From Pyrenula massariospora (lineage: Eukaryota; Ascomycota; Eurotiomycetes; Pyrenulales; Pyrenulaceae), in the NCBI GenBank assembly GCA_021030905.1, contig JAGFMI010000007.1:310001-374000 (forward strand): 64,000 nucleotides of DNA, in the 5' to 3' direction. Made by a program: the position numbers and the translations under genes. Shown piece after piece: positions 14,087 through 64,000 of the stretch (positions within the stretch are counted from its first letter, which is position 1; every line of letters begins with the position of its first letter). Below the pieces are notes generated by a model, which worked only from the letters and a program-made list of their open reading frames with translations, ran no database searches and was not told the origin of the DNA.

Positions 14087-15417
14087 ATGTCCACAGAAGA
14101 GAGCAGGAACATTGTCGTAATAGGTCAGTCATCCTGCCCTTGAAGCGCGCTATGATGTTGATATTAAAGTCAAGCTTAGGAGGTGGTATCATTGGGTGTA
14201 CTACCGCCTATTTTCTTACACGACACCCATCCTTCAGCCCTTCGAAGCATAGTGTCACTCTGATCGAAGCAACAAAGATAGCGGGCGGCGCGTCTGGAAA
14301 GGCTGGAGGTCTGCTTGGGTTATGGGCCTACCCAAGCTCCATTGTCCCGCTCAGCTATCGTCTCCACGCAGAGCTTGCGAAAGAACACAATGGAGACAAG
14401 AGATGGGGCTATCGACAGATATTCGTGGGCCAGATATCCGCAAAAGGTAGACATCTGAAGCAGAAATCCACAGACAAAAATAGCACCGCACACTCCAACG
14501 GTACTGCTGCCGGCGAACATGTGTCCCTAGAGAAAAGAGGCAAGGAATCCCTCGGCCGACTGCGCGCGGCTGGCATCCCGAAAGATCTTGACTGGCTCGA
14601 CCCGTCTACCCTCGAATCCTACGATAGCATGGGCAACCCCAGCAACACCGCCCAAGTCCATCCCTACCAATTCACCACCTCCATGGCAGACCTCGCCACA
14701 GAAAAGGGCGCCAAAATAGTCTTCGGCACCGTGACCGCCATTGACCGCCCCTCTAACCGTGTCAAATCCGTGACATATACCGACAAAGAAACCTCCCAAG
14801 CAGTCACCCTCCCCGCCACCGACATCGTCATCTGCGCCGGCCCCTGGTCCCAACACATCTTTCCCCCCGCCCCAATCTCCGCCCTCCGCGCCCACAGCGT
14901 CACGATCCGCCCCACCCGCCCAGTCTCCCCCTACGCAATATTCACCGACATCCAACTGCCCCCCGGCTTCGGCCGCCGCACCGACGAAGTCCTCTCCTCC
15001 TCCCGCTCCAAACGCGGCGAACACGTCACCCCCGAAATCTACGCCCGCCCCAATCAAGAAGTCTACGCCTGTGGCGAAGGCGATACACTCGTCCCCCTAC
15101 CCCCGACAACCGCGGGCGTCGAGACGGTCGGCTCGCGCTGTCAGGACATCGTGGACTACTGCGCGAGCATCTCGGACGAGCTGGGGGACGGGGAGGTGAC
15201 GGCGCGGCAGGCGTGTTATCTGCCGCGGGTGAGTGATGGGGGTGGGGGGCCGCTGGTGGGGAAGACGGGGGTGGAGGGGTTGTTTTTGGCGGCGGGGCAT
15301 TGGTGCTGGGGAATCCAGAATGGGCCGGGGACGGGGAAGGTGATGAGTGAGTTTGTGTTTGAGGGGGAGGCGAAGAGTGCGAAAATTGGGGGCTTGGATC
15401 CGAGGAGGTTTCTGTGA
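14087..15417 (+). CDS. TDA3: FAD-dependent oxidoreductase, TDA3-like (DAO family)
   Basis: Exons are 14087-14123 and 14180-15417 with a 56-nt intron; the product is 424 residues. Splicing creates the Rossmann nucleotide-binding motif VVIGGGIIGCTTAYFL at residues 10-25, interrupted exactly within the GxGxxG codons. Later blocks are GGASGKAGGLL, a central DIVICAGPWSQ strand, EIYARPNQEVYACGEGD, and a C-terminal GLFLAAGHWCWGIQNGPGTG followed by VMSEFVFEG. These match yeast Tda3, a putative D-amino-acid-oxidase-type flavoprotein implicated in late endosome to Golgi trafficking; its substrate is unknown. The FAD fold is clear, the trafficking role is by homology. Base composition changes sharply inside the gene: C-rich until about 15110, then G-rich to the stop. 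Confidence 0.88.
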
Positions 15418-15919
15418 GAGGTGGATTGTTCGGAGTGCTGCTGAGGGTTTTGTGTCTGAGAAAACGTATGAGGAAATGCGAGACATGTGTGATGCTGTAA
15501 GTTAGGATATCAGAGTGTTCACAGACTGTACAATATCTGAGTAATGGATGGTCGAGATAAGAATTAAATTTTTATCACGCTTCCTGCCTTCACTGACGTG
15601 CGATCCGAAAGAAAGCATATCCCAATCGGCGATCATGCGTCTAAACTTGGCAAGGCCATTAGCCGTAGCCAGACCTCTTCAAGTAAGGCCGAAGGTATAT
15701 CATTGAACTTGAGCAAACTCCACGGCCACCTGGTATCTACTTCAGCTACCCGTCTACCTATCCTCCCACTACCATTCAGCGCTGTGTGCACCCTTGGTCT
15801 GCACTGAACGTACATACTCTGACCAGCCCTAACTTAACCATCACCCTCTACCGTTTATCGTAAGAAACAGTGCAATCCCCCTCAACTGCACTAACACTTC
15901 ATATCTCAGAGCCATGGAC
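15418..15919. other. intergenic region between the TDA3-like gene and the 22-bp repeat array
   Basis: Short open frames near 15598-15815 exist on both strands but are not convincing as genes. I see no other structure before the tandem array begins at 15920. Confidence 0.55.
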
Positions 15920-16183
15920 AAGGTCGTAGGGGGTTATAAATAAGGTCGTAGGGGTATACAAATAAGATCATAAGGGAGCATGGATGTGGTCATAGAGGGA
16001 TGTAAAAAAGATTGTAAAGAGCTTTAGAGGAAGTTATTGAGGAATATAGATGAGATCATAGAAGAATATAGACACTGTTATATAAAGGTATAGATGAGGT
16101 TATAGAGAGATATAAATAACATTGTAAGGGAACATAGACGAGGTTATAGGGTAATTAATGAGGTCGTCGGGAAAGATAGGCAA
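15920..16183 (+). repeat. degenerate 22-bp tandem repeat, about 12 copies
   Basis: Units of exactly 22 bp follow each other from 15920 to about 16139, followed by a 20-bp unit and a partial one. The first unit reads AAGGTCGTAGGGGGTTATAA plus AT; later ones keep a pattern GAGGTxATAGAGGxATATAGAT. Adjacent units differ at several positions, so the array is old or has lost G:C pairs by mutation. It leads directly into the dispersed repeat at 16160-16336. Confidence 0.85.
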
Positions 16184-16336
16184 CTAGTGTAGTAATCGTA
16201 TTAATGGTATGATTGGTTCTATGATGATTCTAAATGATTAATCAATAATACAATTATCTAGGAAGAAGGGAAGTAGTACTGTAAGTCTAGGCGTTGCCAG
16301 TGTGCCTTCCCCATGCACCTAATTTGATCCTGCCTA
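16160..16336 (+). repeat. dispersed repeat, copy A
   Basis: About 175 bp matches a segment near 46080-46258. Shared landmarks in the same order are GTCGGG, ATTGGTyCTATGATGA, GAAGTA, TAGGCGTTGCCA, GTGTyTTCCC and CCTGCCTAAC. No coding capacity or terminal repeats are evident, so the class of element is unknown. Its right end touches the stop of the neighbouring minus-strand gene. Confidence 0.7.
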
Positions 16337-17485
16337 ACCCCATATGAGTCCTCGCCAAACATTCGCACCCATGAACGTCCACCCCTCCTCCTCCCCATCC
16401 GTATCTAGCACCTTTAAAACCTTCCGCATGTGTCGGTTGTCCAGAGCCTCCTCGCTGTCCCGCACGGTGCGCACTTCGCGCTTTTCGGCCTCCAGCGCGC
16501 GTTCTAGGTCCTTGAAATTTATTTCTGTCCAAGTGGATGGGATTTTGGGGGGAAGGCGGTCGCGGGTGAGAAGTATTGACGACGGCGACCTGTTCTTGGT
16601 GTGTTGCACGAAGGCCCGGGTGGGGAGTAGATTTGGAGAAAGGGGCTCGTATTCTGGGTTCATCAGCTGGGCTAGGCAGAGGGTGGTGAAGTTGAGGGTG
16701 TTGGAGTTTGACAGGCCGGTAAATAGGATGCGGCAGATTGCTTTGTCCTGTGCCGACAGATCTGAGTCACTAATGTGTTGTGCGATACGGAGTTCTCTTT
16801 CCTTGTGAAATCTGTCCGTCGTGCTGAACTTACTAGCGAGCTTGGCTAGGAGTTTTAAGCTTTGTTTAAATTCGGGATAAATAGATAGGATGCGCCAGGG
16901 GGATTGGGGTTTGACCCGGGAATCAACATGCAGGATCTTGATGGATCGCAGCTGTGGTGCGAACGTGTCATCTGCCCGGTGAAGAAAGTTGGCTGTGCGG
17001 TGCAGGTCAGTGAACAGTTCTTGGACGGATGAATGTTCGAGCAGAAGCCATTTCGCAGCAGGGGTCATAAATAGACTCAGGGCCTCACGCTCTATGATAT
17101 CAATGTGGCGGACATGAGAAAAGTTGTAAAGACCGATAGCATATCTCAAGCCGTCCGTCTCACCAGGATTGAAGGAGGGAATTGGCCAGTCAACGTCAAT
17201 AAGACTAAAGACGGTTCGGCCGTACAGGATTGGAGCTCCTTCTAGATAAAGAATCCGACATGCATGTAGAATCTGGGTATGACAGTTCTGGTGTATTGGG
17301 GTCAAAAGAATGAAACTGCTGTCAGACGAGTCGAATAGGATTCCGTTGCGGGATTCTGTAACTCCGTTAAAATTATCTTCCATGTACCGGTAAAAATAAG
17401 GTGCAAGCAACTCTTCCAAAATAAAATGACGAACTTCTCTGGGAAGATTTAGAAGCGCCGACGTAGGCTTCGAAGAAACTTCCAT
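16334..17485 (-). CDS. F-box-like/DUF7730-like paralogue 1
   Basis: This is a single-exon frame of 383 residues. Near the N-terminus is LLNLPREVRHFILEELLAP, an F-box-like or 2EXR-like entry motif. It is followed by HTQILHACRILYLEGAPILYGRTVF, a block shared by all five members of the array. A middle SHVRHIDIIEREALSLF...LLLEHSS block and a C-terminal DRLPPKIPSTWTEINFKDLE...EGWTFMGANVW block are also shared. The ending W plus RGLIWG extends a few residues beyond the usual final GxxIW. The motifs suggest a substrate-adaptor or protein-binding role, but no function is established. The last 200 bp of coding are C-rich then G-rich on the plus strand. Confidence 0.75.
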   Translation of the reverse strand: MEVSSKPTSALLNLPREVRHFILEELLAPYFYRYMEDNFNGVTESRNGILFDSSDSSFILLTPIHQNCHTQILHACRILYLEGAPILYGRTVFSLIDVDWPIPSFNPGETDGLRYAIGLYNFSHVRHIDIIEREALSLFMTPAAKWLLLEHSSVQELFTDLHRTANFLHRADDTFAPQLRSIKILHVDSRVKPQSPWRILSIYPEFKQSLKLLAKLASKFSTTDRFHKERELRIAQHISDSDLSAQDKAICRILFTGLSNSNTLNFTTLCLAQLMNPEYEPLSPNLLPTRAFVQHTKNRSPSSILLTRDRLPPKIPSTWTEINFKDLERALEAEKREVRTVRDSEEALDNRHMRKVLKVLDTDGEEEGWTFMGANVWRGLIWG

Positions 17486-18799: not shown

Positions 18800-19885
18800 A
18801 TGACAGTCTCCTCGTAATCGCTGTCGAATCTCATGCGCCTCCCAATCGAAGTTCGTGAAATTATCTTGGAAGAGCTACTCATGCCTTATCGTTTGCATTT
18901 GAAGAACAGAGGTATTGTCGACATCGGCAGGACTGTCCCCGCAGGTGTCTGTTATGATTTCTGTAGGGACGTTTTTCTAGGTACGATGTATTTCCGCTCC
19001 TGCTGTCATATCGATATACTTCGAGTATGTCGAACGCTCTATAAAGAGGGTTCACCGATTCTCTACGGAAGAACCGTGTTCATGCTGAATTTTCTTCCCG
19101 CTCCAACATCAACAATGATACCCATCAATCGTGTGCTCAGAAAATATGGACCTACATCGGACATAACACTCAAGGACAAGATCGGCCCGAATAATTGGTC
19201 TCACATCAAGCACATTCAACTCGCAGAAATAGACGCAAAAGGTCTGTTCCCTCTTATCGCCTTGACCTGGCTCCTCCGTCCAAACCACTCAATCCCATCC
19301 TTTTTCGCCCGCCTCCGCAACTCACACACCCAAGGCAGTTCGTTGCTACCACAACTCCACTCCGTCCAAATCCAACACGACCTTCCATCAAACCCGCCAC
19401 AGTTGTTCCCGCTCGAACAACTCGCTCGGTATACTCTCTCCGAAGAAGATCGGCACACGCTGGTCTTCCTCGCGCGAAAGAGGGTATGGAAAGCCATCAA
19501 ATGTGATCAAGATAGGAAGGGCTTGTCTCGTGTTCTCTCCACCGGCATATCTGACACCCGTACGTTCACGATCCTCTGCATCTTGCACCTTATTATCCAG
19601 AAACGTGACCTCACAAACTTACGCACGAAAGTATTCGAGCTGCCCGCGAAGAGTGGCTTTCAAGGTTCTACCCTGATCACCAAGGAACGCCAGCCGTTGC
19701 AGACGAGAAATGACTGGGTGGAGGTCGATGTGTTGGAATTGCAGCGGTCGATTGAGGATGAGAAGATCAAGATAAGTGAAATGATGGCTGGGGAAAGCCT
19801 GGGCAAGAAGAGGAAGATTGAACAATTTCTGAGGCAGCTGGGTGAGGGACACGGGTGGACTTTTATGGGTGGCAGGATTTGGTGA
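18800..19885 (+). CDS. F-box-like/DUF7730-like paralogue 2, with in-frame stop near ancestral start
   Basis: The longest intact frame begins at ATG 18833 (350 residues; MRLPIEVREIILEELLMPYR). It has the shared blocks CHIDILRVCRTLYKEGSPILYGRTVF, WSHIKHIQLAEIDAKGLF and a C-terminal GHGWTFMGGRIW. An in-frame ATG at 18800 begins MTVSS, then TAA at 18815-18817, then SLSNLMRLP. This aligns codon by codon with MEVSSKPTSALLNLP of paralogue 1, so the ancestral start was probably 18800 and codon 6 has become a stop. The gene may now start at 18833, losing 11 residues ahead of the LP-EVR motif, or it may be an early pseudogene. It is the only plus-strand member of the array. Confidence 0.7.
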
Positions 19886-20252
19886 ACGTGCAGTAGTGGT
19901 GATACAATTTGGCCTCATGTGATTAGTAGGTAGAAATTTCCGCAGTGGGTGAATCTCAATTGGAGCAATCGATGCTTGTTCAATTGTACCCATTTATATA
20001 GGCCAATTAGCCTAAGCTTCCGGTAGAGAGAGAGAATGTAGTATCTGGAGGGATTTTAAATCAGGAATTAGGTGATCTCTTATGAACCGAATCTTTCCTA
20101 GAGATGGAATGGTTGCTGGCAGCAACAAATTGAACAACGAGGTTAATTAAAAGGATACTGGATGGCTGGTGACTATTGCAAGGCTATCATGAAGCCATCT
20201 TCAATTTCGAAATCTCGACTAACTGCCTTGGCTAGGTAAATTGCCTTAAGCA
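19886..20252. other. convergent spacer
   Basis: This 367-bp region lies between the 3' ends of paralogues 2 and 3. I see no gene, and nothing beyond a short GA run near 20028. Confidence 0.55.
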
Positions 20253-24867: not shown

Positions 24868-25773
24868 TCTTCGACGTTCATTAAGCCTAATGGCGAGTCG
24901 CGATCAAGAATGTAATATGCGCGTGGACGATACTTAGGAGCTGTTGAATAAGTTCTGTGTTTTTTGAGCTTGCAGTAGCTCTGGTGAAGGCCGAGGTGCA
25001 AGTAGTCGCCAACAAAGGTGCAGGTTTAAAAGGCTATTGAGCTTAGGAAATGATATGTTGAAGCCGTGACCAGTGACTAAAGTCATCTTCACTTGTTGAG
25101 ATGGATAGAGACGTGGCTGGATTTGTGTTCACCACCCTGCTCCAGTGATAGCCGCCCGAGCACGGCTGCTGTCATGCTGCTCAAAGTAAAATGAATCTAA
25201 TTATGTTTGTACCTGAGAAAACCAGGTGAGTAATATAAGACGCTCAGATGGACGAGCAGCACGAAAAACACATATTCAATGGCCTAGAGAGCCAGAGCAA
25301 CCTATTCTGGCAATATGTGAGAAGCTTGTCTGCTTTATCTTTTCCGTGACTCACGGCACAGCCCGCCACATCGCGTTGTAAAACTGTCTGGAATAGCTTT
25401 GCTTGCGATTCGAATAATATACGTTATTAAGGAGAAACTTATCGTTGCGCAGACAATTGAATATAGTGGACATGGCCTTGGTGGTACATGTTCGACAAGG
25501 CGGTGTTGGGAGCCGAAACAAGATGAGAATGTGTCTCATTCATACGAACGAGACATCCAATTTTATGCGGTACGCAGCTGAATTCTTCTCCTACATGCGA
25601 GTACAGTCTCAATACAACTCGGGTAATCTCTTGCGCTCTCTATTCTCGCTCCTTCTCAATCCACAATGGGACTGCATCGTATGAGAGATATGTCCTTTCC
25701 ACAACATCCAAACATCACTGCACATCCTTCTCAAATAGCACACATTAAAACCTGCACTCTTGACTCCAACTCT
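24868..25773. other. intergenic region
   Basis: No gene is supported here. Short frames on both strands at 25351-25684 lack any recognisable feature. From about 25750 the plus strand becomes strongly C-rich, the left arm of a composition island that continues through the next gene. Confidence 0.55.
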
Positions 25774-26526
25774 CTACGCCTTCCTCCCTGCTCCCTCTCC
25801 CTCTCGCACACCCACCTCCTGACCTCTTCCCCTCCCCCAATCCATCTCAAGCACCTCACCCCCAACCTCCTCCGCCAATCCATGGCCCCCCTCAACCACC
25901 CTCCTCTTCCTGATCCTTCCAACCCATACCGCACCCCCAAAAACGCCCACCACATGTCCCAGCGTCGCAAGCACCCCAAACACGCACCCTGCAACCTCCA
26001 GCGCCGCCACCCGCCCAAAAGCCGGCAGGCAGTAGTATTCTAGCGTCTTGTGCTGGTCATCGATGTAGGCCGGGCATCGGAATGTGCGATCCCTGGCTAT
26101 GTAAACTTCTACAGCGTTACTCTCCACGGCGCAGAAGGCGATTAGGGCGCCGACTAGTACTGTAAGGAGTACATCGCACGCTAGGATCTTGGCTGCGATG
26201 CGGAGGCCGGTGCGGGGTTTTGCAGGAAGTGTGGGACTAGGACGGATCTTGAGGAGAGGGACGAGGCGGGCGAGGGAGTGTAGGATGGACATGAGGAGGG
26301 AGCAGAGGGGGTAGATGTCGGTGAGCATGGGGAGGTCGAGTTCGGAGCCGGAGGAGTCGGTGATATTGTTGGAGTAGAGGATGGTGGCGGAGAGGAGAAG
26401 GAGGAGGGAGAGGAGGGAGGATATTAGGAGAGTGGTGCGGTGGAGGAGGGTGAGGTAGGGGTGGGGATATCGGGGCGAGGATTGCAGATGAGAAGGGATT
26501 GGGAGGTGGGGATTGAGGGAACGCAT
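25774..26526 (-). CDS. predicted four-TM membrane protein, unknown function
   Basis: The frame encodes 250 residues in one exon. After a Pro/His-rich leader there are four hydrophobic segments: about 33-55 (LISSLLSLLLLLSATIL), 72-92 (LCSLLMSILHSLARLV), 112-132 (ILACDVLLTVLVGALIAF) and 172-200 (AALEVAGCVFGVLATLGHVVGV). The loop between the last two has two cysteines (FRCPAYIDD, EYYCLPAF). The tail is Gly/Glu-rich. The layout resembles small fungal MARVEL-like proteins, but I do not recognise a specific family. Coding sequence is C-rich at the 5' end and G-rich at the 3' end, and the low-complexity tail may partly reflect that bias. The start is the first Met; no upstream alternative was evident. 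Confidence 0.65.
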   Translation of the reverse strand: MRSLNPHLPIPSHLQSSPRYPHPYLTLLHRTTLLISSLLSLLLLLSATILYSNNITDSSGSELDLPMLTDIYPLCSLLMSILHSLARLVPLLKIRPSPTLPAKPRTGLRIAAKILACDVLLTVLVGALIAFCAVESNAVEVYIARDRTFRCPAYIDDQHKTLEYYCLPAFGRVAALEVAGCVFGVLATLGHVVGVFGGAVWVGRIRKRRVVEGGHGLAEEVGGEVLEMDWGRGRGQEVGVREGEGAGRKA

Positions 26527-27855
26527 TGTAAGGGAGGGAGGAGGACGAGTGACGATGGCGGACGTAAGGGAGGGATGGTGGCTAGTAAGAAGATGGTGAA
26601 TCTAATGCTTGAGAGAAATTTGGTTAAGCGTTGTGTCAGAGTGGGCTTATTAACAGTGGAGGTAGAGCTTCTTCAGCTCTTTGCCTCGTGGTCCGGGCAT
26701 CGAACTTTAAGATCAAAAGCACCACATCCCCTCAAACACGTGAGTGACCAAACGTGAGAGATTCTGAAGAACGATGCACTAAGGAAACGGTGTACAGCCT
26801 AATTAAGAACAACAATATTGGGCTCAACCACATCAAAAGCGAGCATTAGATAGGCGAGGAAAACGAGCATTTAGAAAGAGGAAGACACGAAGCGTGCTCG
26901 ATGTCTCAGGCACAGCCTCCGCCATTTTCCTAGGAAATCACCCAGTCTACTGAGAGATTCTTTTGACACGGGCTGTAACTAGCACAAGGCTCCATTCGGC
27001 GGAACACCGCAGCCAACTTTTAGGAAGACCAACATTGACAGACGCTACAATATGGCACCTGCTTGTCACTGCTCCGCCACCCGCTCCGGGAGCAGACGAA
27101 TTGGGAAGTCCGGGGCGGGAGGACTCTGCATGGGTCGGATTGAGGACGTTAGATGAGTCTCTGATGAGGTCACTGAAAGCGGACTGATGATTTTCTTTGC
27201 GGTGGGTACGTTGCGTGCTGGATGAGAGCGGAGAGTAAATGTTTATACTACTATGGTCCGCAGGGGCATAAATTTTAGCGGCCTCCACCCCCGCCGCTTT
27301 TTACATACACATATATCATTCGAGTGAGACTATTTGGACTGTCTCTGTATTATATACACTCCTTTACCAACGTTACTAAGAATTCACTGAAATTCAAACC
27401 CCCACCGACCATACTACCATGCCAAGGCGGCACTATCTCCGCTCGCGTCGAGCTTTATCTCCGGCACAGTAAACATTCCTTCTATGACCCTCCGAGGTAG
27501 CTGTCAAGCTTCAACTCATTACTATGATATGCAACAGCTCCTTTGTACGAAGTGAGCGGCAGTGCTCTTTGACCTCACAATTCCCAGCTCTCTAATTGTC
27601 ACTCGTTTCCTATTAACGCTTCGCCTGTAGTCGACCTGACTTCCTAAGCGCCAGAAACGATTCCTCGGTCTCGCGCACCTCCAATTTCCTTGTCTCACGG
27701 AGTATAAGTCCTTCGAACCTCTCGGAGTCGCGTACCTGAAGCTCTCTCGACACCCTCAAAACAAGCTTCAAAACTCCGCCTTCACACCCTCACAACCCAC
27801 TACCGCATCCACCCTAGCCCACACCAAACCCCCTACCCTATCCAACCTAGCAACA
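26527..27855. other. divergent intergenic region
   Basis: This 1.3-kb region separates two divergent genes. A minus-strand frame at 26947-27288 (113 codons) has no recognisable features. I see no RNA gene and no repeat. The right end, from about 27780, is already C-rich. Confidence 0.5.
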
Positions 27856-28593
27856 ATGCCCTCAACCGCCACAAACCCACCCCCTCCTCCTCCCGCCGCC
27901 CCGGCCCCACCTCCAACAACAACGACATCCCACTCCCACCTCCGCCGCACGCTCCTCCAACCCACCCTCTCCCGCCGCCCCACCTCCTCATCAACCTCCC
28001 GCCCCGCCTCCTCAACCAGCACCACAACCACAACCGCCACCTCCCGCCCCACCTCCCGCTCCAGCACCACCCGCCGCACAAACCCCCAAACAACCATCAC
28101 CAAGCCCCTCACCACCATATTATCAACCACAGAAAAACCACCACCGCCACCAGTCAGTACGGAAATCATCCCCCGCGACCCCCTCGGCCGCTTCCCCCTC
28201 CCCGCCGTCCTCACCCTCTCCCTCCCAAACCCCTCATCCTCCCCATCCCCCACCGCTTCCCCCACGCCCCCCTTCTCCTCCCGCGACCGCGACCTCGAAG
28301 ACCGCGCCCGCATCGACGCCGTGATGCGCACACGGCTGAAAGCGACGGGGTCGCGGTACGGCGGGCGGCGAGGCATCGAGCTACGCGGGGTTGGGGGAGA
28401 AGACGAGGCGGAGGAGACGGAGGAGGTGGTGGGGATTGTGTGGGAGAGGTTAAGGGCTAGAGTGGAAGAGGCGGGGAGGGAGGGGTGGATGTTTGGCGGT
28501 GGTGCGAGCGGGGGGTTGGGGGAGGAGAGCTGTGGGGAGGGGGAAGGGGTGGGGGAGAACTTTGGGGGTGGGGGGAATTTTGGGGGAGGTTGA
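27856..28593 (+). CDS. low-complexity protein with a short conserved-looking core
   Basis: The frame encodes 245 residues. The first half is Pro/Ser/Thr-rich (PPPPPPAAPAPPPTTTTS). The middle has a more structured part: PRDPLGRFPLPAVLTLSLP, then DRDLEDRARIDAVMRTRLKATG and SRYGGRRGIELR. A further helical segment follows (EEVVGIVWERLRARVEEAGREGWMFGG), and the tail is Gly-rich. The helical blocks look genuinely coding, while the flanks follow the base-composition switch (C-rich before about 28325, G-rich after). No function can be given. The start is the only Met before the Pro-rich tract. Confidence 0.55.
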   Translation: MPSTATNPPPPPPAAPAPPPTTTTSHSHLRRTLLQPTLSRRPTSSSTSRPASSTSTTTTTATSRPTSRSSTTRRTNPQTTITKPLTTILSTTEKPPPPPVSTEIIPRDPLGRFPLPAVLTLSLPNPSSSPSPTASPTPPFSSRDRDLEDRARIDAVMRTRLKATGSRYGGRRGIELRGVGGEDEAEETEEVVGIVWERLRARVEEAGREGWMFGGGASGGLGEESCGEGEGVGENFGGGGNFGGG

Positions 28594-28823
28594 GTGGGTT
28601 GGGTTGGGGATGGAGATGTGGGAGAATGGCATTACACGGGCTGGGATTGATATTCAAGGGGTTTCGGTTGGACGGCGAGGAAATTCGGGGATAGCAAAAG
28701 TTGATTTCTAGTTTTAATAATACGCAATATCACATCCTCAATCATTGTCACTTCAACCGATCTATATATCTGTTCTTCACACTACACGTAGCGCTACCGT
28801 TCTCAAACACACCCTGGCCCTTT

Positions 28824-30096
28824 CTAGTCTAGATCCATAGCCTGCGGCGCCTCCACCGTCTTCGTCTCCCCCTTCCCACCACCACCACCCTTCTTCCCCT
28901 CCTTCCCCCCCTGCTGCTGCCCCTGCCCGCTCGGCGTCCCAGGCCTCCCCCCACCACCCCCACCCCCACCGCCAAAAAACATACTCCCCATCATATCAAA
29001 CAGCGGATTCCCCTGCCTGGGGATCTTGATCCCAAACCACGCCTCCCCAATCTGCGCCAGCGCGTCCCCCCAGCCCCAGACCTCCTCGACCTCCTTGACA
29101 TTCACCGCGTAGTGCTTCATCAGGTCGCGGAACAGCTTCGCGTCGGCCTTCTGGCACGCAAGAAGTAAAAGGCCGAGGTAGTTGAGGAGGGGCAGGGAGG
29201 GGAAGACGCGCAGCTCGGAGCGGGTGGTGGAGACGGATTGGGTGAAGAGGTGGGGGTTGGCGGAGGTGAGGGCGGCGCAGAAGGTGGTGTAGGCGAGGTT
29301 GGCGGAGGAGAGGTTGCCGAGGAGGAGGTAGGGGAAGATGGCGCGGGAGAGGTAGAGGGGGGCGAGGTGTGGGGCGTCGGTGGTGTACCAGGTGTAGAGG
29401 AGGGAGGAGAGGGTGGGTGCGGAGGCGGGGTGGCCGAGGGGGAGGTGTTGTTCTGTGGCGTAGGGGTCGGATTCTGCGTTTGGGGTTGGTTTAGTGGGGA
29501 AGAGATTGAGGGGAGGTGGAATGTGTACCTTCTGCGTAAAGCTTTCCGACTGCGTCTTGGAGGTCTGGATCGCCTCGCTCGATAGCGCCGTGCTTGCCGG
29601 ACCAGTTGAGCATTTCTGTTATGAAGCGTTTGCGGGTTGGTTCTATTGGAGGGAAGGATTTGAGGACTTCAAGAAGACGATCTATAGACAGCGTCGTAAG
29701 CTTCAGAGATTTTCAAAAGACAATTTTTCGCGTCTCACCTTTGTGTGCATCATTACACTCCCAATCACCTTTCTCATAGACCTCGTTTAACAGCATGATT
29801 GAGAGATCCCCACCACTGCCGCCATGGCCAGCTTGTAGCAAAGCTTTCGCACCACCGGAGAGGACTTCTGCGGCGGCATCATAATTCTTTGACTTGATAT
29901 ATCGAGATGCTATAACACGGAGCTGCTGGTGTGCTTCGTAGAAGTCGCCATTTGCGATTCTGAACAGTCAGTTAGATTTTGCCAATCTTTGGAAGGCCTC
30001 ATGAGTCTGCGCAGTCACAGGGAGAAAATGAATTTGTCTCACGTACCTTTCTTTCTGACGAGCTATTGTCTTTTCTATCTTGGCTGTGGAAGACAT
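28824..30096 (-). CDS. GET4: Get4, GET pathway component
   Basis: Four exons are 30096-30047, 29959-29739, 29681-29529 and 29473-28824, with introns of 87, 57 and 55 nt; all phases agree and the product is 357 residues. The N-terminus is MSSTAKIEKTIARQKERIA. The alpha-solenoid repeats include ANGDFYEAHQQLRVIASRY, YDAAAEVLSGGAKALLQAG, LSIMLLNEVYEK and RFITEMLNWSG. The C-terminal block contains YLGLLLLACQKADAKLF and AQIGEAWFGIKIPRQGNPL. Get4 pairs with Get5 to hand tail-anchored proteins from Sgt2 to Get3 in the cytosol. The protein ends in a Gly-rich tail (GGGGGGGGGRPG) coinciding with a strong C-to-G composition switch at about 29150. It is convergent with the low-complexity gene on its right-hand side of the map at 28593. 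Confidence 0.93.
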
Positions 30097-38460: not shown

Positions 38461-39386
38461 ATGGCGATACTATCCACTCAAATAGCCCGACTAGACGGTT
38501 TGAATCTCTTTCTTAAGGTATCAGCTAGATACTGACCGGTTTGCAGGGCTGATGCTAGCGGCATCAGTAGACTCGGAGCAGGTTCGTTGTCACTGACCCT
38601 GCAAAGACCTGGCAGCGTGGGATCTTGAACTTAATGAAGTCCCCGGCAAATCACTGTCAACATGTACGGGAAACTTTTCTGACTCAACTGCTATGTACAG
38701 GCCGAATCAGATATCTCCGAGATCAAAACACAGGCCAAAATGATCTTCCGCAGACTGAACCGCAACAGCGAGCAACAAGCGAGTATCGAATCCGAACAAT
38801 ACACTCTCCAGTATGCGACCCTTTCATCCACCTGCTAGTTGCGCTGGCTAACAGTGTCCCAGCTACCTAATCCGAGATTCTGTCTGCTTCCTCTGCATAT
38901 GCGAACGTTCGTACCCTCGAAAGCTTGCCTTCACATACCTTTCCGATATTGCAACCGAGTTCACCACCAACTATCCTTCCCAACAATATCTTGCTCCTAC
39001 CACGAAGCCATACGCTTTCGTTGCGTTTGACACTTTTATCCAACGGACGAAGAAGACGTACCAAGATTCCCGGGCATCTCAAAATCTAGACAAGTTGAAT
39101 GATGAGCTGAGAGATGTGACGAAGGTCATGACGAAGAATATTGAAGATTTACTCTACCGAGGGGATAGTTTGGAGCGGATGGGGGAGATGAGTGGCAGAT
39201 TACGAGAAGATAGTAGGAAGTACAGGAAGGCAGCTGTGAGGATCAATTGGGAGCTGCTGCTGAAGCAGGTAAGCTCCATCACCAACTCTCGGAAGGTTCC
39301 AGCAGAAGTGACAAATATGACAGTATGGACCCTTTGCGGCTCTCGGTTTCATCATGCTTTTCTTCATATGGTGGCGATTTCTCTAG
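38461..39386 (+). CDS. SEC22: SNARE Sec22
   Basis: Five exons are 38461-38497, 38547-38581, 38701-38810, 38863-39268 and 39324-39386; introns are 49, 119, 52 and 55 nt and all phases agree. The product is 216 residues, the usual Sec22 length. The longin domain begins MAILSTQIARLDG, then LMLAASVDSEQAESDISEIK, and includes CFLCICERSYPRKLAFTYLSD. The SNARE helix is LNDELRDVTKVMTKNIEDLL with the central Arg in YRGDSLERM. The C-terminal anchor follows YGPFAALGFIMLFFIWW. Sec22 is an R-SNARE for ER-Golgi traffic. As a tail-anchored protein it is a GET-pathway client in principle. The last exon encodes only the membrane anchor. Confidence 0.95.
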
Positions 39387-39545
39387 ACCCTTTTCGCCCA
39401 TTTTTCCTCTCCATCGCCAGCATTTTTGCATGTATATGATACCCCTTGGCATTGTACATATATAGATCTTTCACATCACGCCAGCACGATTGTCGGCGAA
39501 TGCGCATGTCTTTTTCGAAAGCAACGACTTCATCTACCCATCGTC

Positions 39546-42413: not shown

Positions 42414-42980
42414 ATGCCTCCTGTTACAAGATCCCAAACCGGATCCGCCGTCCACACCAAACACGATTCCTTGGCGCAAAGTGATCTCTCCCGCGATGCC
42501 CTCCAGTCCACAGCAAAACATAATAGCAAGCCTCGAAACGCATCCAATTCAGAATTCTCGGATCAGCCGCTAGATCCAGATTCACCCGCTGCGCCGATAA
42601 GCCACCCAGACCCAACATTCTACAGCAGAAATATCACACCAGCCGCTCCAACCCCCACAACCCAAGTCTTCGATACAAACAAATTCTCAAACTACGACCC
42701 ATCAACCGGCGTCGGCGAAGCCGTCTTCTGCAAGTCTTCCGACATAGCAACAGTCAGCCCATCCAAGCCCTCACCACCCCCGAACACGCCTCCAATCTAC
42801 TACGGACCGTCCCCATCCGCAGCAGTAGCGGCTCTAGGCGAACGTAAACGAAAGAGATCTCTGCATGGCTGGGACGGATGGATATGCCACCGGTGCGATA
42901 TGGACAACACGTCGGCGAAGTTGTGGTGCGTGATCTGCGAGCATTATACGATTGGGTGTATGGAGTGCTTTAGCTATTGA
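42414..42980 (+). CDS. hypothetical protein with C-terminal Cys-rich zinc-ribbon-like motif
   Basis: From ATG 42414 the frame encodes 188 residues (MPPVTRSQTGSAVHTKHD). The frame is open further upstream to 42261, but the leader there (FVTHQQREPSFV...) looks non-coding. Most of the protein is disordered, rich in Ser, Pro and Asn. The C-terminus reads GWDGWICHRCDMDN followed by KLWCVICEHYTIGCMECFSY. That gives three CxxC/CxxxC pairs and a leading Trp, similar to RanBP2-type or other small zinc ribbons, though spacing does not match any family I can name. Nuclear or protein-binding role is guesswork. Confidence 0.6.
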   Translation: MPPVTRSQTGSAVHTKHDSLAQSDLSRDALQSTAKHNSKPRNASNSEFSDQPLDPDSPAAPISHPDPTFYSRNITPAAPTPTTQVFDTNKFSNYDPSTGVGEAVFCKSSDIATVSPSKPSPPPNTPPIYYGPSPSAAVAALGERKRKRSLHGWDGWICHRCDMDNTSAKLWCVICEHYTIGCMECFSY

Positions 42981-43155
42981 GTTGAATTGAATTGAATGAA
43001 GTGGTTTTTAATAGGATGGTGGAATGTGAGCTGAGCGAGTACCCACCCTCCATTATCCCTCCCCTATTTAAACTCCCTTCTCAGCGTGCAACCCCACGAG
43101 CCTAAAGCGTCCAGCGCCCTCCAGCACACCACAGTATTTACCTCCTTCCCCCCTG

Positions 43156-43602
43156 TCAACCTCTCTTCCCCTTCCCCTTCCTCTTCCCAACCCTCCTCCT
43201 CTTCCTCCCCACACCCATCCCCACACCCCTCGCCAAACACATCCCCCGATAATCCCTCCTCACCCCATCTCCCCCCCTTAACCCCGCCCTCCCTCTCCCG
43301 CCCCTCGCCCGATCCTCCCGTGCCCGCGCCCGCGCTTCTAGATCCGCTGCCCGCCCCCGCCGCCGGCGGGCTTGTTTGTTCGGTTCCTCGGTCTCGGGAG
43401 CGGTGGGGGATGATAGTAGAGTCCGAGACTGATAAGCTTGTGTTTCCGGCGGGACGGGGCTCGGGGTCGGGGTCGGGGTCGGGGTGGGGGTGGGTTGCTC
43501 GCGGGCGCGGCGGAGGGCGCGGCGCTTGTCGGGGAAGTCGTCGATTAGGAGGAGGGGGTGGCGGCGTGGGGGGGAGGTGGAGCGGCTGGGCCGCTGTGGC
43601 AT
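43156..43602 (-). CDS. possible Arg-rich low-complexity protein
   Basis: The frame encodes 148 residues starting MPQRPSRSTSPPRRHPLLLIDDFPDKRRALRRARE, which looks like a genuine protein start. A TPTPTPTPTPSP tract follows, then a long Arg/Gly-rich tail. The tail may be an artefact of the G-rich composition and the true gene may be spliced or end differently. The opposite strand (43086-43721) is also open, Ser/Pro then Gly-rich, which is expected from C-rich followed by G-rich DNA. Treat this as a weak candidate. Confidence 0.3.
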   Translation of the reverse strand: MPQRPSRSTSPPRRHPLLLIDDFPDKRRALRRAREQPTPTPTPTPTPSPVPPETQAYQSRTLLSSPTAPETEEPNKQARRRRGRAADLEARARAREDRARGGRGRAGLRGGDGVRRDYRGMCLARGVGMGVGRKRRRVGKRKGKGKRG

Positions 43603-43936
43603 TGGGCGCTGTAGTGGGTTGGTTAGTGAAGTGGGTGGGGAGGGCGGAGGCTTACTTGCTGATTTGTAGGGGAGGTTTGGGGAGAGTGGGTAGGTTAGGG
43701 TTTGGGTTTTCTTGTGCGTGAGTTAGTGAAGGTATTTGGCGATTTTAGTGAGTGTATACCGGAGGTGCCGGCTCTGATGAGAGCTATGGAATATTGGGGT
43801 GGGTAGGTGGGGGAGTAGTGGAATAGAATTTGATGGACGCTGCTTTCTAACAAGTCTGGAATTGCGAAGATTTGGATAAGAAGGAGGCGAAGGAGCTTGT
43901 AGGAAAGAGACCGGCTCTCAAAGAAAAGGACAAAAG

Positions 43937-56473: not shown

Positions 56474-57159
56474 ACATAATGAGAAGTTATTTGCTAGAAG
56501 TAGCGTTCAAGATAAGTATAATACTTTTTTATCTGATACATCAATCTATCAGCCAAATAATTGAGAACTCTTAGAGCCGGGCTTTCCGCGGTAATTTGTC
56601 ATTCTATTACTGGAAAGGCAAAGTTTGCCGCTTAAACTTAATGCTACCTTAAATGAACACCAATACGCTTTTTCCGGTAGAATTTGGTTGTGTCTGTCTA
56701 GATTCTTTGCAAAGGTCTTTGTCGAGGGTTGGAGGTAGACCCTCATACCAAGATCGTGGTAGCCGGCCCAGTGGACTAACCTTCTTATTCGGGAATGCAG
56801 CTCGTGTGAAGCCAGGGTATCATGTTTCATCGTCTCATCACACAATCGAACTCCAAATGCACAGTAAGCACCTCGCCAATTTCACACTTTTTCCTCTCCA
56901 ACCATTCACCCTCTCCCCGCAAACATCGCCTCTCTCATTCTCCTTCTTTCCCTAACCCCACCGCCTCCGTCTCTCGTTAAAGAATCCGCAATCGCTGCAA
57001 TTCCGACGCTGTCCCCTCCGAGCCTCCGGATCGCTGTCGCCGCCGCCTCGAGCGTCTCGGCTCGCGTGCCCGTATCCCATGGGTACGGGTCTGGAGCGTC
57101 GAGCACGGTCGCGCCGTTGATGCTTTGGGGGTCTGTGCTGGGTGAGACCCGTTTGCATA
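56474..57159. other. region downstream of the duplicated gene end
   Basis: A minus-strand frame (stop at 56906) is open from about 57305 down and reads FVITVESGLRNRDDVLSATK, then HPWYRLVTLRPLKVSL, then ETLEAAATAIRRLGGDSVG. It looks coding and may be a further exon of, or a duplicated end from, the gene at 57363-58120. Between 56474 and 56900 I see nothing else. Confidence 0.4.
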
Positions 57160-57640
57160 CTGCGGCTTCTTCTGTGGAGGAGTCAGTGAGGGAGACCTTG
57201 AGGGGGCGGAGGGTCACGAGCCTGTACCAGGGGTGTGAGAACTTTGTTGCGGAGAGGACATCGTCTCTATTCCTAAGCCCGGATTCGACGGTAATGACGA
57301 ATTAGGGAGCCGGTCTTCTTCCTTTTCCCTCCTTTTTGGCGGCCGCCTCGCAGACGGGCTTCTTACAAATCCGTCCAGCTGAGCCTCTCTTCCTGCAAGG
57401 GCTTCTTCGGAGGAGTTAGTAAGTTCGCATCTGAGGAGAAAATAGGGGGAACGGAATAGTACCGAAGGAGCTGAAAGTTTGCCGGGAGTATAACTCTGGC
57501 GTTCCCGTACTCGGATTAGATGGTAACGACGAATCTGGGCTCTTCGCCTCCACTTCGTCCTTCTCCCTTTGTTTCGGCGGTCGCCTTGCCGACGGACTCC
57601 TCAAGTAATCCCCCATCTGACCATCACTTCCTGCCGCAAC
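57160..57640 (-). repeat. imperfect ~238-bp tandem duplication at a gene 3' end
   Basis: Two copies lie at about 57403-57640 and 57160-57402. Matching landmarks (minus strand) are GCAGGAAG at 57634 and 57396, CCGTCxGCxAGGCGxCCGCC, GTCxTTACCxTCxAATCCG, and CTxACTCCTCC...GAAGAAGCC at the ends (57419 and 57186). In the same frame both copies encode RSPSARRPPK-Q/R-REK and SSLPSNP. Substitution is substantial, so the duplication is not recent. Confidence 0.75.
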
Positions 57641-58120
57641 ATTTTCGTACGTCGGCGGCGACGGCCACGGCGAAGTGGTGCCCTCTCCAGGTAACGCGTG
57701 CAGACAATTTAATGCAGTCCCCAAACTCTGATGGCATGTCGCCAGCCAACTCTGATGCGTAATAAAATGCTCCTTATTCTTGAGCACCCACGCGAATCTG
57801 TGCGGAAGCGTCATATGTCTCCCCTTATCCCCGTCCACGCGGCCATCCTCGACCAGCCTCCCGATCGTGACGAGCGCGCTCTCTGCGTCCGAGACCACTT
57901 CATCGACGTACGCCTGCTTGGAGGCATCGCGGCTGAGCGCGGCGGACTTGGTGTGGCGCTCGGATTTGAGGAGGCGGAGGTCCTTGCGCACGCGGTCAAT
58001 GAGGGTGGCGAAGACGTGGACGTCGTCTGGGGCGCTGGAGAGGCGGAGAAAGAAGTCCGCGAGCTTGAAGCTGGTGCCGATGCTAGAGGCGATGGCGGAG
58101 ACAGAGACTGGCTCGGCCAT
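57363..58120 (-). CDS. fungal STAND-type N-terminal domain protein, 3' end uncertain
   Basis: The start Met at 58120 gives MAEPVSVSAIASSIGTSFKL, a helical N-terminal domain common in fungal signalling and STAND-type proteins. It continues IDRVRKDLRLLKSER, DAESALVTIGRLVEDG and FAWVLKNKEHFITHQSWLAT. A disordered RSPSARRPPKQREK segment follows. Unspliced, the frame stops at 57416. I prefer exons 58120-57511 and 57430-57363 (80-nt intron, GTACGG...TCAG; 225 residues) because this ends ANLLTPPKKPLQEERLSWTD, a natural-looking tail. A third reading of the intervening DNA (ARVILPANFQLLRYYSVPPI, directly continuous with that tail) also looks coding, with TAA just upstream. So the acceptor may lie elsewhere or the gene may be damaged. 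There is no NACHT or repeat domain. Confidence 0.55.
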
Positions 58121-58475
58121 TTTGGTAAGCAGATCGAGGCTGTTGGAAGAAAAGTTGGGGTCGTCGCACATACTGTACTCAGAGTAGAGTAGATTGAACT
58201 GAAAGAGCTATGAAGTGGAAATTGACGAGATTTGGTTTGCGGCGATCGTCGGTTCTGATCTAGTACTCATTACCCCTTATGGCTTGGGGCGTTCGGTGGC
58301 GCAGCCTTTCCTCTACATACTTTCCACAAGAGCGCGGTTGATTGAATTGCCGTGGGATTTGGACCCCAATCGATCTGGAGAAGGATCTAGTGGGTGTGCA
58401 GTGCAAAGCGGGCGGAAAGCATAATAAAAGCCTAATACTACCACACGGTCGGGTCTAGCGCCATAGTGGGCGTCT
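58121..58475. other. spacer
   Basis: This 355-bp segment lies upstream of the preceding minus-strand gene and downstream of the next one. I see no gene; the last in-frame Met upstream (58171) is an alternative start for the gene at 57363-58120. Confidence 0.5.
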
Positions 58476-62648: not shown

Positions 62649-62899
62649 ACTGGCTCCACAGACGAGTCGCAATGAGGGCGAAACTGGCGCAAAGAAGGAA
62701 ATGTAGTGTTGAATCCAAGTGGTTCGGTATGATTAGCCTAGATAGATATTTGATGCTAAAATAAACTCGGTCCTGTGGTCGTCTAATGGATAGAGCCGGC
62801 TGGGCCGGTGGGGCGGGTAAACCTATCTACCTTATCTAAGGTAGTTCGCTGTATTTAAGGTTGGAGTTTGCATCGCATTGTGGATTTGCCTGCTCTTGT

Positions 62900-64000
62900 A
62901 TGCCCCGTCTCCCACCCACGCTTTTGCGTCATGCGCAGTCTCTTTCTCCACGCCTTCCACTCCTCCTGCAAGAATGCCGCGACCTTCGATCCGCGCAGAA
63001 TGAGCTCCGCTGGCTGAAAGAATATGCTGTCGAGAAAGCTTTGCAAAGTCGAAAAAGCCGTCCCAACTCAGAACACAAGTCTGCAATAAAACAGGAGAGG
63101 TTAAAGCAGCGATATCCGCGACTGTACAGATCTCGATATGCAATTCAAAAAATAAGAGACGGTGCAAGAAGGCTAGGATGGCGTGCACTACTAGACCTCT
63201 ACGTGCGACAAAGATCGCGAGGAAAGCCTCTACAATACATCCTGGGAAGTCAGCCATTCGGCGACTTGGACATCCTCTGCCGGCCCGGTGTCCTTATCCC
63301 CAGGCCAGAGACGGAGGAGATTGTCACCAGAACCGCTGAGATCCTTCGCCGCCGAATCGACCAACTCATCAAAAACCCGAACAAACCCAACCATGAGCAG
63401 GAAGCCAGCATACAGGGAACAGCCTCCACGAAGAGCTCACCAACCTCCCCTAACACACCACCCCCACCGCTCATCCGAATCCTCGACCTCTGCACAGGAA
63501 CTGGCTGCATCCCCCTCCTCCTCACCTCCCTCCTCCACACCCACCACTCCACCCTCCAAATCCACACCCACGCCCTCGACATCTCCCCCGCCGCCCTCAC
63601 CCTCGCCCGCACCAACCTCGCCCGCGCCATCTCCTCCGCCCACCTCCCCCCAAGCGCCGCAGAACAAATCACCTTCCACCGCGCAGACATCCTCGACCCC
63701 ACCGCCCTCCCCCTCCCACCCCCTGTGCACACCGCCGACCTAGAACCAGACCTAGAACTCCTAATCTCAAACCCCCCCTATATCTCCCCCCACTCCTACG
63801 CCAACGGCCCCGTATCCCGCAGCGTGCGCCGCTACGAGCCCAAACTCGCTCTCGTTCCCCCTCAATCCTCACACTCCCCTCCCGTCCCACGCGGCGACGA
63901 ATTCTACACCGCGATCCTCCGCATCGCGAAAGCGCGGCGGCCGGGGCTGTTGGTGCTGGAGACGGGGGACCGGGCGCAGGCGGAGCGGGTGAGGAGGTTA
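62900..64000 (+). CDS. MTQ1: HemK/PrmC-type glutamine N5-methyltransferase, 5' part
   Basis: From ATG 62900 the frame is open to the right edge (367 codons), so the gene is truncated by the window. The N-terminal domain ends GKPLQYILGSQPFGDLDILC, leading into PGVLIPRPETEEIV, both signature blocks. The SAM-binding motif I is RILDLCTGTGCIPLLL. The catalytic NPPY is in LLISNPPYISPHSY near residue 290. The enzyme methylates the GGQ glutamine of a release factor; a mitochondrial Mtq1-like role is most likely, given the fungal eukaryotic context, although no clear targeting peptide is seen. Residues 50-85 (SRKSRPNSEHKSAIKQE) are unusual and could be an intron read through. Composition is C-rich from about 63440, then turns G-rich near 63930. 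Confidence 0.85.
   Translation, partial: MPRLPPTLLRHAQSLSPRLPLLLQECRDLRSAQNELRWLKEYAVEKALQSRKSRPNSEHKSAIKQERLKQRYPRLYRSRYAIQKIRDGARRLGWRALLDLYVRQRSRGKPLQYILGSQPFGDLDILCRPGVLIPRPETEEIVTRTAEILRRRIDQLIKNPNKPNHEQEASIQGTASTKSSPTSPNTPPPPLIRILDLCTGTGCIPLLLTSLLHTHHSTLQIHTHALDISPAALTLARTNLARAISSAHLPPSAAEQITFHRADILDPTALPLPPPVHTADLEPDLELLISNPPYISPHSYANGPVSRSVRRYEPKLALVPPQSSHSPPVPRGDEFYTAILRIAKARRPGLLVLETGDRAQAERVRRL

What the first reader, a model, noticed from the sequence alone, without database searches (positions are those of the whole stretch)
14570..64000. Recurrent C-to-G skew switches inside GC-rich islands, always in the same order
Seven or more islands of about 0.6-0.9 kb are C-rich and then abruptly G-rich on the plus strand. 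Approximate switch points are 15110 (TDA3-like), 26030-26190 (membrane protein), 28325 (low-complexity gene), 29150 (GET4), 39880 (ELP5), 43380 and 63930 (HemK-like); weaker cases lie near 16510 and 57930. The order is C then G regardless of gene strand; because this pattern is its own reverse complement, coding strands are always C-rich 5' and G-rich 3'. It changes codon use and even amino-acid content (Pro/Ser/Thr tracts give way to Gly/Glu tracts) within one exon. A negative-to-positive GC skew transition is what a replication origin would leave. Biased gene conversion around a recombination hotspot or transcription-linked strand damage are alternatives. None of the annotated features explains it.
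Basis: partly seen in the sequence, partly recalled or inferred. Interest (0 to 1): 0.8.

Follow-up and report, generated by a model that had tools for sequence, protein, structure and literature searches.

The report
C-to-G skew islands at gene ends
Near the ends of many genes in this fungal stretch the DNA flips from very C-rich to very G-rich, always in that order, which looks like a strong and sharply localised form of a weaker, known fungal base-composition trend whose cause is still unexplained.

Summary
A three-state segmentation of the 64 kb finds 24 skewed segments that form 12 islands, 12 of 12 C-rich then G-rich, no lone arm; looser settings add up to five lone segments, including one weak G-then-C pair at 32.8 kb. 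Average skew runs from about -0.7 to +0.8 and is gone within 0.6 kb. Third codon positions carry the strongest skew in 11 of 12 readable arms; non-coding flanks and amino-acid content are affected too.

This resembles, in focal and extreme form, the published average trend of fungal genes: C-biased 5', G-biased 3' (McLean & Tirosh 2011, PMC3315797).

Ordinary fork-direction skew does not fit amplitude or scale. Symmetric GC-biased conversion does not fit: G falls below background at purine sites of the C arms. I favour a transcription-linked, strand-asymmetric mutation or repair process acting outward from a point in the gene's 3' part; recombination initiation is the main rival. No relative or whole genome was available, so mechanism is inferred.

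The parts
14596..15506 (+).
   Evidence: HMM; Pfam DAO 5.7e-41; third-position skew -0.88/+0.57
16305..16733 (-). Island 2 (weaker): C arm 16305-16532, G arm 16533-16733, 3' part of a DUF7730-like gene (stop 16334), convergent with island 1
   Evidence: DUF7730 2e-4, below its curated cut-off
19249..19901 (+). Island 3 (weaker): C arm 19249-19441, G arm 19716-19901, 3' part of a DUF7730 gene (stop 19885); only its C arm remains in one of six settings
   Evidence: DUF7730 5.4e-8
25694..26667 (-).
   Evidence: no Pfam match
27742..28715 (+). Island 5: C arm 27742-28333, G arm 28334-28715, low-complexity ORF (stop 28593)
   Evidence: gene model is an open frame only
28716..29525 (-). Island 6: C arm 28716-29108, G arm 29109-29525, 3' part of GET4 (stop 28824), convergent with island 5
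   Evidence: Pfam GET4 5.2e-45; GET4 similarity continues across the switch
39522..40395 (-). Island 7: C arm 39522-39911, G arm 39912-40395, ELP5/IKI1 (stop 39546)
   Evidence: Pfam Elong_Iki1 5.8e-64
42433..43040 (+). Island 8 (weaker): C arm 42433-42824, G arm 42825-43040, ORF ending in a Cys-rich, zinc-finger-like stretch (stop 42980)
   Evidence: stretch seen by eye, no Pfam match
43041..43821 (-). Island 9: C arm 43041-43364, G arm 43365-43821, ORF 43156-43722 (-) of unknown function, convergent with island 8
   Evidence: no Pfam match
56834..57257 (.). Island 10 (weaker): C arm 56834-57079, G arm 57080-57257; no gene assigned
57819..58160 (-). Island 11 (weak): C arm 57819-57914, G arm 57915-58160, ORF 57416-58207 (-)
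   Evidence: no Pfam match
63343..64000 (+).
   Evidence: third-position skew -0.93/+0.83 (25 right-arm codons); only methyltransferase matches of 0.005-0.007, below cut-off
39044..39387 (+). Sub-threshold switch at 39044-39091 in a longin/synaptobrevin SNARE gene whose last exon appears to end at a stop near 39386, convergent with ELP5
4302..4446 (+). Sub-threshold C-to-G step at about 4302 in ORF 3964-4446 (possibly the last exon of the CRT10 gene)

Best explanation
Each island is the evolutionary scar of a strand-asymmetric substitution process that acts outward in both directions from a point in the 3' part of a gene, about 0.3 kb upstream of the stop codon. In coding arms, on the strand that runs 5' to 3' away from the centre, A and C are depleted and G is enriched (shown as composition; direction of change inferred). 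The islands look like an intense, focal form of the known C-5'/G-3' skew of fungal genes. Mechanism I consider most likely (inferred): transcription-linked exposure and error-prone repair of the non-template strand in the late part of transcription units. Sense transcription would mark the gene's last 0.3-0.4 kb as G-rich. Antisense or read-through transcription from the other side would mark the stretch further upstream as C-rich. Where the two overlap, GC is raised without skew. The confidence refers to this specific mechanism; for the wider class 'centre-out, strand-asymmetric mutation or repair footprint tied to gene 3' regions' I would say 0.8.
For: Anchoring: 9 of 11 switches lie 150-370 bp upstream of a stop (genic expectation 0.154, P 2e-6; interval chosen after seeing the data). 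SD of distance is 97 bp to the stop against 274 bp to the approximate start for 10 gene-assigned switches; P 3e-4 for uniform placement within genes. Aligned on stops, 10 island genes go from -0.49 through 0 at about -250 to +0.62 in the last 100 bp and +0.37 in the first 100 bp after the stop; the 16 others from -0.05 to +0.14. A stop-aligned index is positive at 24 of 27 stops: 10 of 10 island genes, 14 of 17 others. Same sign as PMC3315797, where four-fold sites, UTRs and amino acids are affected too. Non-coding arms: left C .39 G .10, right G .40 C .09. Not symmetric GC bias: at two-fold purine sites of the left arms A is 77%, G 23%, background G 46-50% (Fisher P 8e-5 on counts rebuilt from rounded percentages; 61 A to 23 G with refined centres). 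GC is highest at the skew-free centre (0.67), as expected if two opposite strand-specific GC-raising processes overlap. Stops facing a convergent neighbour score higher than tandem ones (mean 0.58, n=14, against 0.18, n=11, two ambiguous stops left out; P 0.059, 0.088 with Pfam-supported genes only; suggestive and post hoc).
Against: No RNA, recombination or replication data. As a fraction of gene length the switches are not significantly nearer the stop than chance (mean 0.36, P 0.063). In long genes the C arm does not begin at the 5' end (TDA3-like gene -0.08 at 800-1000 bp before the stop), so the published 'initiation phase' idea does not fit as it stands and antisense transcription has to be assumed. 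In the non-coding arms A and T are balanced (left .26/.25, right .25/.27) and GC is only about 0.49, so there the change looks like exchange of G and C rather than loss of A. At right-arm pyrimidine sites the T excess is not significant (61%, P 0.41), and the 26-kb ORF has 7 A to 8 G at left purine sites. The convergent-gene trend misses P 0.05, and one of the strongest islands (25.7-26.7 kb) has a tandem neighbour. Extreme strength in a minority of genes has no explanation here.
Confidence: 0.4

Rival explanations
1. Recombination hotspots: double-strand breaks recur in the 3' part of certain genes; error-prone repair synthesis, or strand-biased mismatch correction, extending about 0.4-0.5 kb each way leaves C before and G after the break, with GC-biased conversion raising GC at the centre.
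For: Focal, patchy, variable strength; transition of 20-90 bp logistic scale in 6 of 7 strong islands; arms of strong islands about 0.3-0.6 kb; GC-rich core. Human meiotic break repair leaves strand-asymmetric C>N and A>N flanks around a centre without asymmetry (PMC7615360, section 4). Zymoseptoria has many hotspots in exons (1435 of 2578 in Z. tritici; PMC5844332 passages).
Against: Polarity: read together, section 4 and the legend of Fig. 1 put the exposed, mutated strand on the forward strand left of the break, which would leave G before C. The opposite order here needs nascent-strand or displaced-strand damage instead. [quoted passage not shown] Nothing in the break model predicts anchoring to stop codons.
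Confidence: 0.3
2. Sites of replication initiation that leave a local footprint (breaks and error-prone synthesis near the origin), as described for human constitutive origins.
For: The negative-to-positive order is the classical origin polarity. Human constitutive origins show a local GC rise and skew jumps attributed to mutagenesis at origins (PMC9645720, abstract and passages). Yeast MCM sites show a small C-to-G rise within 400 bp (PMC10945306 passages).
Against: Skew jump of 1.0-1.4 in 300-bp halves against 9% at S. cerevisiae origins; baseline within 0.6 kb, whereas yeast skew decays over about 20 kb (PMC3459929 section 16). Complete islands have centres only 0.54-0.84 kb apart. 12 sites in 64 kb, 11 of 12 inside frames that I assigned to genes. 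That author finds the leading strand enriched in A and C in three yeasts, the opposite sign.
Confidence: 0.12
3. Selection at the RNA or protein level: a C-rich then G-rich message forms a long hairpin, tunes polymerase speed (the adaptive idea of McLean and Tirosh), or encodes low-complexity tails.
For: C-rich and G-rich arms can pair; Pro/Ser/Thr give way to Gly/Glu; two of six islands fold somewhat better than shuffles (z -2.4, -1.7).
Against: The other four do not (z 0.06, -0.5, -0.8, +1.4; 30 shuffles each). G4 count in arms equals the shuffled expectation, 20 against 21. Third positions and non-coding flanks are affected, and the conserved GET4 domain runs across the switch. The polymerase-speed idea was not tested.
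Confidence: 0.1
4. Symmetric GC-biased gene conversion or protein-driven composition alone.
For: GC rises to 0.67.
Against: Cannot produce opposite skew on the two sides, nor G below background at purine sites of the C arm.
Confidence: 0.03

Closest known systems
C-biased 5' / G-biased 3' GC skew of fungal genes (McLean & Tirosh 2011, PMC3315797; parts 1-3 of 4 of the text read)
   Same: Sign and order on the coding strand; four-fold sites, UTRs and amino-acid content affected; G bias often extends past the stop; filamentous ascomycetes such as Aspergillus, Botrytis and Neurospora are in its data set.
   Different: There an average over genes; here discrete islands with skew about -0.7/+0.8, GC-rich cores, both arms organised around one centre about 0.3 kb before the stop, with a near-neutral 5' part in the long TDA3-like gene. 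No such islands are described in the parts read.
Local mutational footprint and skew jumps at human constitutive replication origins (Murat 2022, PMC9645720; abstract and passages read)
   Same: Local GC rise with a skew switch, attributed to breaks and local error-prone synthesis near the origin.
   Different: No origin data here; amplitude and anchoring to stop codons.
Centromeric GC skew jumps in Candida albicans (discussed in Marsolier-Kergoat 2012, PMC3459929; section 16 and passages read)
   Same: Very large local jump (74%) that returns to baseline nearby (about 3 kb) and is argued not to be replication-related.
   Different: At centromeres, not in ordinary genes; longer arms.
Strand-asymmetric mutations flanking human meiotic breaks (PMC7615360; section 4, passages and legends read)
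   Same: Centre without asymmetry, opposite strand bias on the two sides; A and C are the bases lost.
   Different: Opposite polarity; 2 kb flanks.

Membership tests
Fungal C-5'/G-3' gene skew (McLean & Tirosh) | Coding strand changes from C bias to G bias towards the 3' end | tested here: met
   same sign at 14 of 17 non-island stops
Fungal C-5'/G-3' gene skew (McLean & Tirosh) | Four-fold sites, UTRs and amino acids affected | tested here: met
   four-fold left C .71, right G .78; non-coding arms; Gly 3.0 to 21.7%, Pro 12.7 to 2.8%
Fungal C-5'/G-3' gene skew (McLean & Tirosh) | C bias strongest at or before the 5' end of the gene | tested here: not met
   TDA3-like gene: coding skew -0.08 at 800-1000 bp before the stop; its C arm starts about 450 bp inside the (approximate) gene. 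In the two short ORFs at 26 and 28 kb the C arm does reach the 5' end
Fungal C-5'/G-3' gene skew (McLean & Tirosh) | AT skew flat and positive | tested here: inconclusive
   Folded AT skew -0.14 to +0.04; A excess at left purine sites
Replication-origin skew jump | Negative-to-positive GC skew at the switch | tested here: met
Replication-origin skew jump | Modest amplitude decaying over kilobases | tested here: not met
   Baseline within 0.6 kb; jump 1.0-1.4 in 300-bp halves
Replication-origin skew jump | Replication initiates there | not testable with these tools
   No replication data
GC-biased gene conversion hotspot | GC rise at the centre | tested here: met
   GC 0.63-0.67 within 300 bp of the centre, 0.47 at 700-900 bp
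GC-biased gene conversion hotspot | G and C favoured equally on both strands | tested here: not met
   Left arms: G 23% at purine sites, background 46-50%
GC-biased gene conversion hotspot | Elevated recombination | not testable with these tools
   No recombination map
Meiotic-break mutational footprint | Centre without asymmetry, asymmetric flanks | tested here: met
   Folded skew 0.24 at 0-50 bp, 0.59-0.74 at 100-400 bp; a gradual centre could also come from spread of switch positions
Meiotic-break mutational footprint | A and C lost on the forward strand left of the break | tested here: not met
   In coding arms C, and A relative to G, are enriched on the left and depleted on the right

The most novel reading that the evidence does not exclude
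The gene-averaged C-5'/G-3' skew reported for most fungi is largely the smeared sum of discrete bidirectional mutation hotspots set about 0.3 kb upstream of stop codons, a class of locus that I did not find in the papers I could search. They would be strong enough to rewrite codon and amino-acid content, and possibly mark 3'-end recombination or initiation sites with a polarity opposite to the human meiotic-break signature.
Probability: 0.35. Interest if true: 0.75.

Novelty: new variant of a known kind. Interest (0 to 1): 0.58.

Why it matters
If general, the islands turn an unexplained average trend into discrete, mappable sites, so its cause becomes testable: transcription, recombination or replication initiation each predict a different genome-wide map at the switch points. 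They also point to a force strong enough to override third-position and part of amino-acid choice in conserved genes. That matters for codon-usage studies, for tests of selection, and for low-complexity protein tails that may be by-products of mutation rather than function.

Tried and rejected
RNA hairpin or G-quadruplex selection: folding better than block shuffles in only 2 of 6 islands; G4 count equal to shuffles. Tandem repeats: 11 short arrays, 7 of them inside islands, none spanning an arm. tRNA or known RNA genes: none reported (ARAGORN ran with the bacterial code). Common motif at the switch: none seen by eye in the 11 stretches of about 150 bp printed; no formal motif search was run. 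CpG depletion: not seen, CpG ratio 1.06 in arms against 0.90 outside; CpA is depleted (0.81 against 1.11) but TpA, the product expected of RIP, is not raised (0.70 against 0.69). Break sites at island edges instead of centres: set aside, because most islands have neutral flanks on both sides.

Search for related DNA: three scans of viral contigs with window proteins gave two loci with a 21-residue match, phage-like by my reading; a conserved histone query gave two short contigs from bacterial MAGs and nothing in viral contigs; a protein search of plasmids gave 600 prokaryotic plasmid records, all below 60% identity, 5 listed. None was used as evidence. Ten literature searches found no description of such islands among the titles and abstracts listed; several lists were capped (for example 15 of 264, 15 of 109). 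The phrase search for the 2011 paper's title found 4 papers including itself. The library holds only open-licence papers. PMC9001825 (strand bias in mismatch resolution) was seen as abstract only and does not decide the question.

Weak points of my own tests: the 150-370 bp interval and the convergent/tandem comparison were chosen after seeing the data; four gene models (25.8, 27.9, 42.4, 43.2 kb) are open frames without family support; several gene starts are approximate; the eight background stretches were hand-picked from non-island genes; two ambiguous stops were left out of the convergent/tandem test; the HemK-like switch was left out of the stop-distance test because its stop is outside the window.
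Full report
What is there. The window carries genes of a fungus (matches to CRT10, NACHT/ankyrin, DUF7730, GET4, GH43, aconitase, Elong_Iki1, SNRNP27 and ATG22 families); calling it a filamentous ascomycete is my inference, since no genome or name is given. A three-state segmentation marks 12 C-rich and 12 G-rich segments (4280 and 3710 bp). They pair into 12 islands, each C-rich on the left and G-rich on the right, with gaps of at most 274 bp between arms. Shuffles of 30-, 90- and 150-bp blocks give about as many C-to-G as G-to-C adjacencies (1.4/1.2, 3.3/3.3, 2.7/2.0 on average over 15 shuffles each), against 10 and 2 here, the 2 being seams between islands; 90-bp-block shuffles contain more segments than the real window (44 against 24), so the order is what is unusual. 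Across six parameter sets 11-16 pairs are found; looser sets also report lone arms near 0.3-0.8, 27.1, 32.0-33.2 and 41.1 kb, including one weak G-then-C pair at 32773, and one strict set leaves the 19.2-kb C arm alone. The six strongest complete switches exceed every one of 60 shuffles of 90-bp blocks at 300-bp and 400-bp scale; at 150 bp only one does.

Anatomy. Averaged over the seven strong islands, GC skew reaches -0.77 at 150-200 bp left and +0.81 at 250-300 bp right of the switch. When the two arms are folded together the skew is 0.24 in the first 50 bp, 0.59-0.74 from 100 to 400 bp, 0.43 at 450-500 bp, 0.21 at 500-600 bp, and -0.06 to +0.06 beyond. GC content is 0.67 at the centre and 0.51 at 450-500 bp, so it fades sooner than the skew. 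A smooth transition (logistic scale 20-90 bp) fits 6 of 7 strong islands better than a step; the cut HemK-like island and four weaker ones do not discriminate. The centre is therefore a zone, not a base-exact site.

It is not driven by protein or codon choice alone. In the six strong islands with a readable frame the third position carries the largest skew in 11 of 12 arms. At four-fold sites the left arms are C 71%, A 17%, G 6%, T 6% and the right arms G 78%, T 11%, A 7%, C 4%, against a near-even background. Non-coding parts of the arms share the G/C imbalance (left C .39, G .10; right G .40, C .09), but there A and T stay balanced. The pressure reaches amino acids: from upstream to downstream of the switch in five genes Gly goes from 3.0 to 21.7%, Glu 3.2 to 11.3%, Pro 12.7 to 2.8%, Ser 11.4 to 2.6%, Thr 12.4 to 3.0% (693 and 503 residues). 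Yet GET4 aligns to a solved chain (3lpz_A, E 1.4e-47; other hits are named Get4) straight through the switch. The ELP5 and TDA3-like comparisons with solved chains were weaker and are not used.

It is not symmetric GC bias. At two-fold purine sites on the left, A is 77% and G 23%, while background G is 46-50% (Fisher P 8e-5, counts rebuilt from rounded percentages). Five of 6 genes show the A excess; the 26-kb ORF has 7 A and 8 G. At right-arm pyrimidine sites T is 61% against 54%, not significant (P 0.41). Taking composition as a guide to substitution, in coding arms the strand that runs outward from the centre loses A and C and gains G. If that strand is the exposed or newly made one, its 5' end lies at the centre. 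By established models that is the polarity of a lagging-strand template at an origin, of the non-template strand in divergent R-loops, or of the nascent or displaced strand in repair synthesis. It is opposite to the resected strand at a meiotic break, which lies on the forward strand to the left of the break (PMC7615360).

It is anchored to gene ends. Of 12 switches, 11 could be tested against a stop codon (the HemK-like gene ends outside the window). Nine of the 11 lie 150-370 bp upstream of a stop; the misses are 57079 (no gene assigned) and 57914 (498 bp). For ten gene-assigned switches the distance to the stop is 291 bp on average with SD 97, against SD 274 to the approximate start; uniform placement within genes gives an SD this small in 0.03% of 50,000 simulations. 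Expressed as a fraction of gene length the shift towards the stop is not significant (mean 0.36, P 0.063) (all). Five of five switches in genes with a DAO, GET4, ELP5 or DUF7730 match (one of these below its cut-off) fall in the interval. Aligned on stop codons, the skew of ten island genes crosses zero at about -250 bp and ends about 100 bp after the stop; at 16 other stops the same trend is present but small, -0.05 to +0.14. The stop-aligned index is positive at 24 of 27 stops. Three convergent gene pairs carry an island in both genes (14.6-16.7, 27.7-29.5 and 42.4-43.8 kb), but the trend for convergent over tandem neighbours is only suggestive (P 0.059; 0.088 with Pfam-supported genes alone).

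What is known. McLean and Tirosh (2011, PMC3315797; parts 1-3 of 4 read) reported that the coding strand of genes in most of the fungi they examined is C-biased at the 5' end and G-biased at the 3' end, at four-fold sites and in UTRs too, and offered transcription-phase mutation or CTP economy as causes. The islands share the sign and those features, but are focal, far stronger than an average trend, GC-rich, and organised around a centre rather than the two gene ends: in the TDA3-like gene the first 450 bp or so are near neutral. The simplest unification is that the published average contains such islands in diluted form; I could not test this. Marsolier-Kergoat (2012, PMC3459929) argued that a 74% local jump at Candida albicans centromeres is unlikely to be replication-related because it fades within about 3 kb, against a 9% jump over about 20 kb at yeast origins; by the same reasoning a fork-direction skew is unlikely here. 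A local initiation footprint such as Murat et al. describe for human origins (PMC9645720) is not excluded.

Mechanism. Shown: a centre-out, strand-antisymmetric composition with GC maximum at the centre, tied to the 3' part of genes, in coding and non-coding sequence. Inferred: that it is mutational or repair-driven, and that transcription is the trigger. The transcription model explains the anchor to the stop, the end of the outer arm just past the stop, the general weak trend, the hint of convergent-gene preference, and the GC-rich skew-free centre as an overlap of two opposite strand-specific processes. It needs antisense or read-through transcription in the upstream arm, which is untested. 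Recombination initiation explains patchiness, the GC core and the length scale, but not the anchor, and needs a polarity opposite to the human one. I put about 0.4 on transcription, 0.3 on recombination, 0.12 on local replication initiation.

Limits. One 64-kb window, no annotation, no relatives, no functional data. Several tests were designed after seeing the pattern and are marked so.

Noticed in passing
16334-24903: Run of five DUF7730-family frames (three with matches below cut-off) in mixed orientation, an apparent local gene-family expansion; two carry weak islands, three do not.
   Followed up: partly
5188-13123: Long minus-strand ankyrin-repeat frame (2094 aa) next to a NACHT/NPHP3_N frame, probably one spliced gene; no skew island although its 3' end faces a plus-strand ORF.
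   Followed up: no
15920-16114: Degenerate tandem arrays of 22-bp period, low in GC (33% at 16001-16200), between two convergent island genes; they produce a C-to-G step at 15915 (0.202) that the segmentation does not call an island.
   Followed up: no
32027-33239: Weak G-then-C transition (switch 32773) reported under four of six segmentation settings, around the 5' side of the GH43 frame.
   Followed up: partly
41001-41800: Strong A-over-T skew (+0.37 to +0.42 in three of four 200-bp bins) in the SNRNP27-domain gene, upstream of the conserved domain.
   Followed up: no
island arms: 20 predicted G-quadruplex motifs on the outward strand of the arms (inward strand not scanned) and none in 35.2 kb of background on both strands; the number equals that of shuffled arms.
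   Followed up: yes
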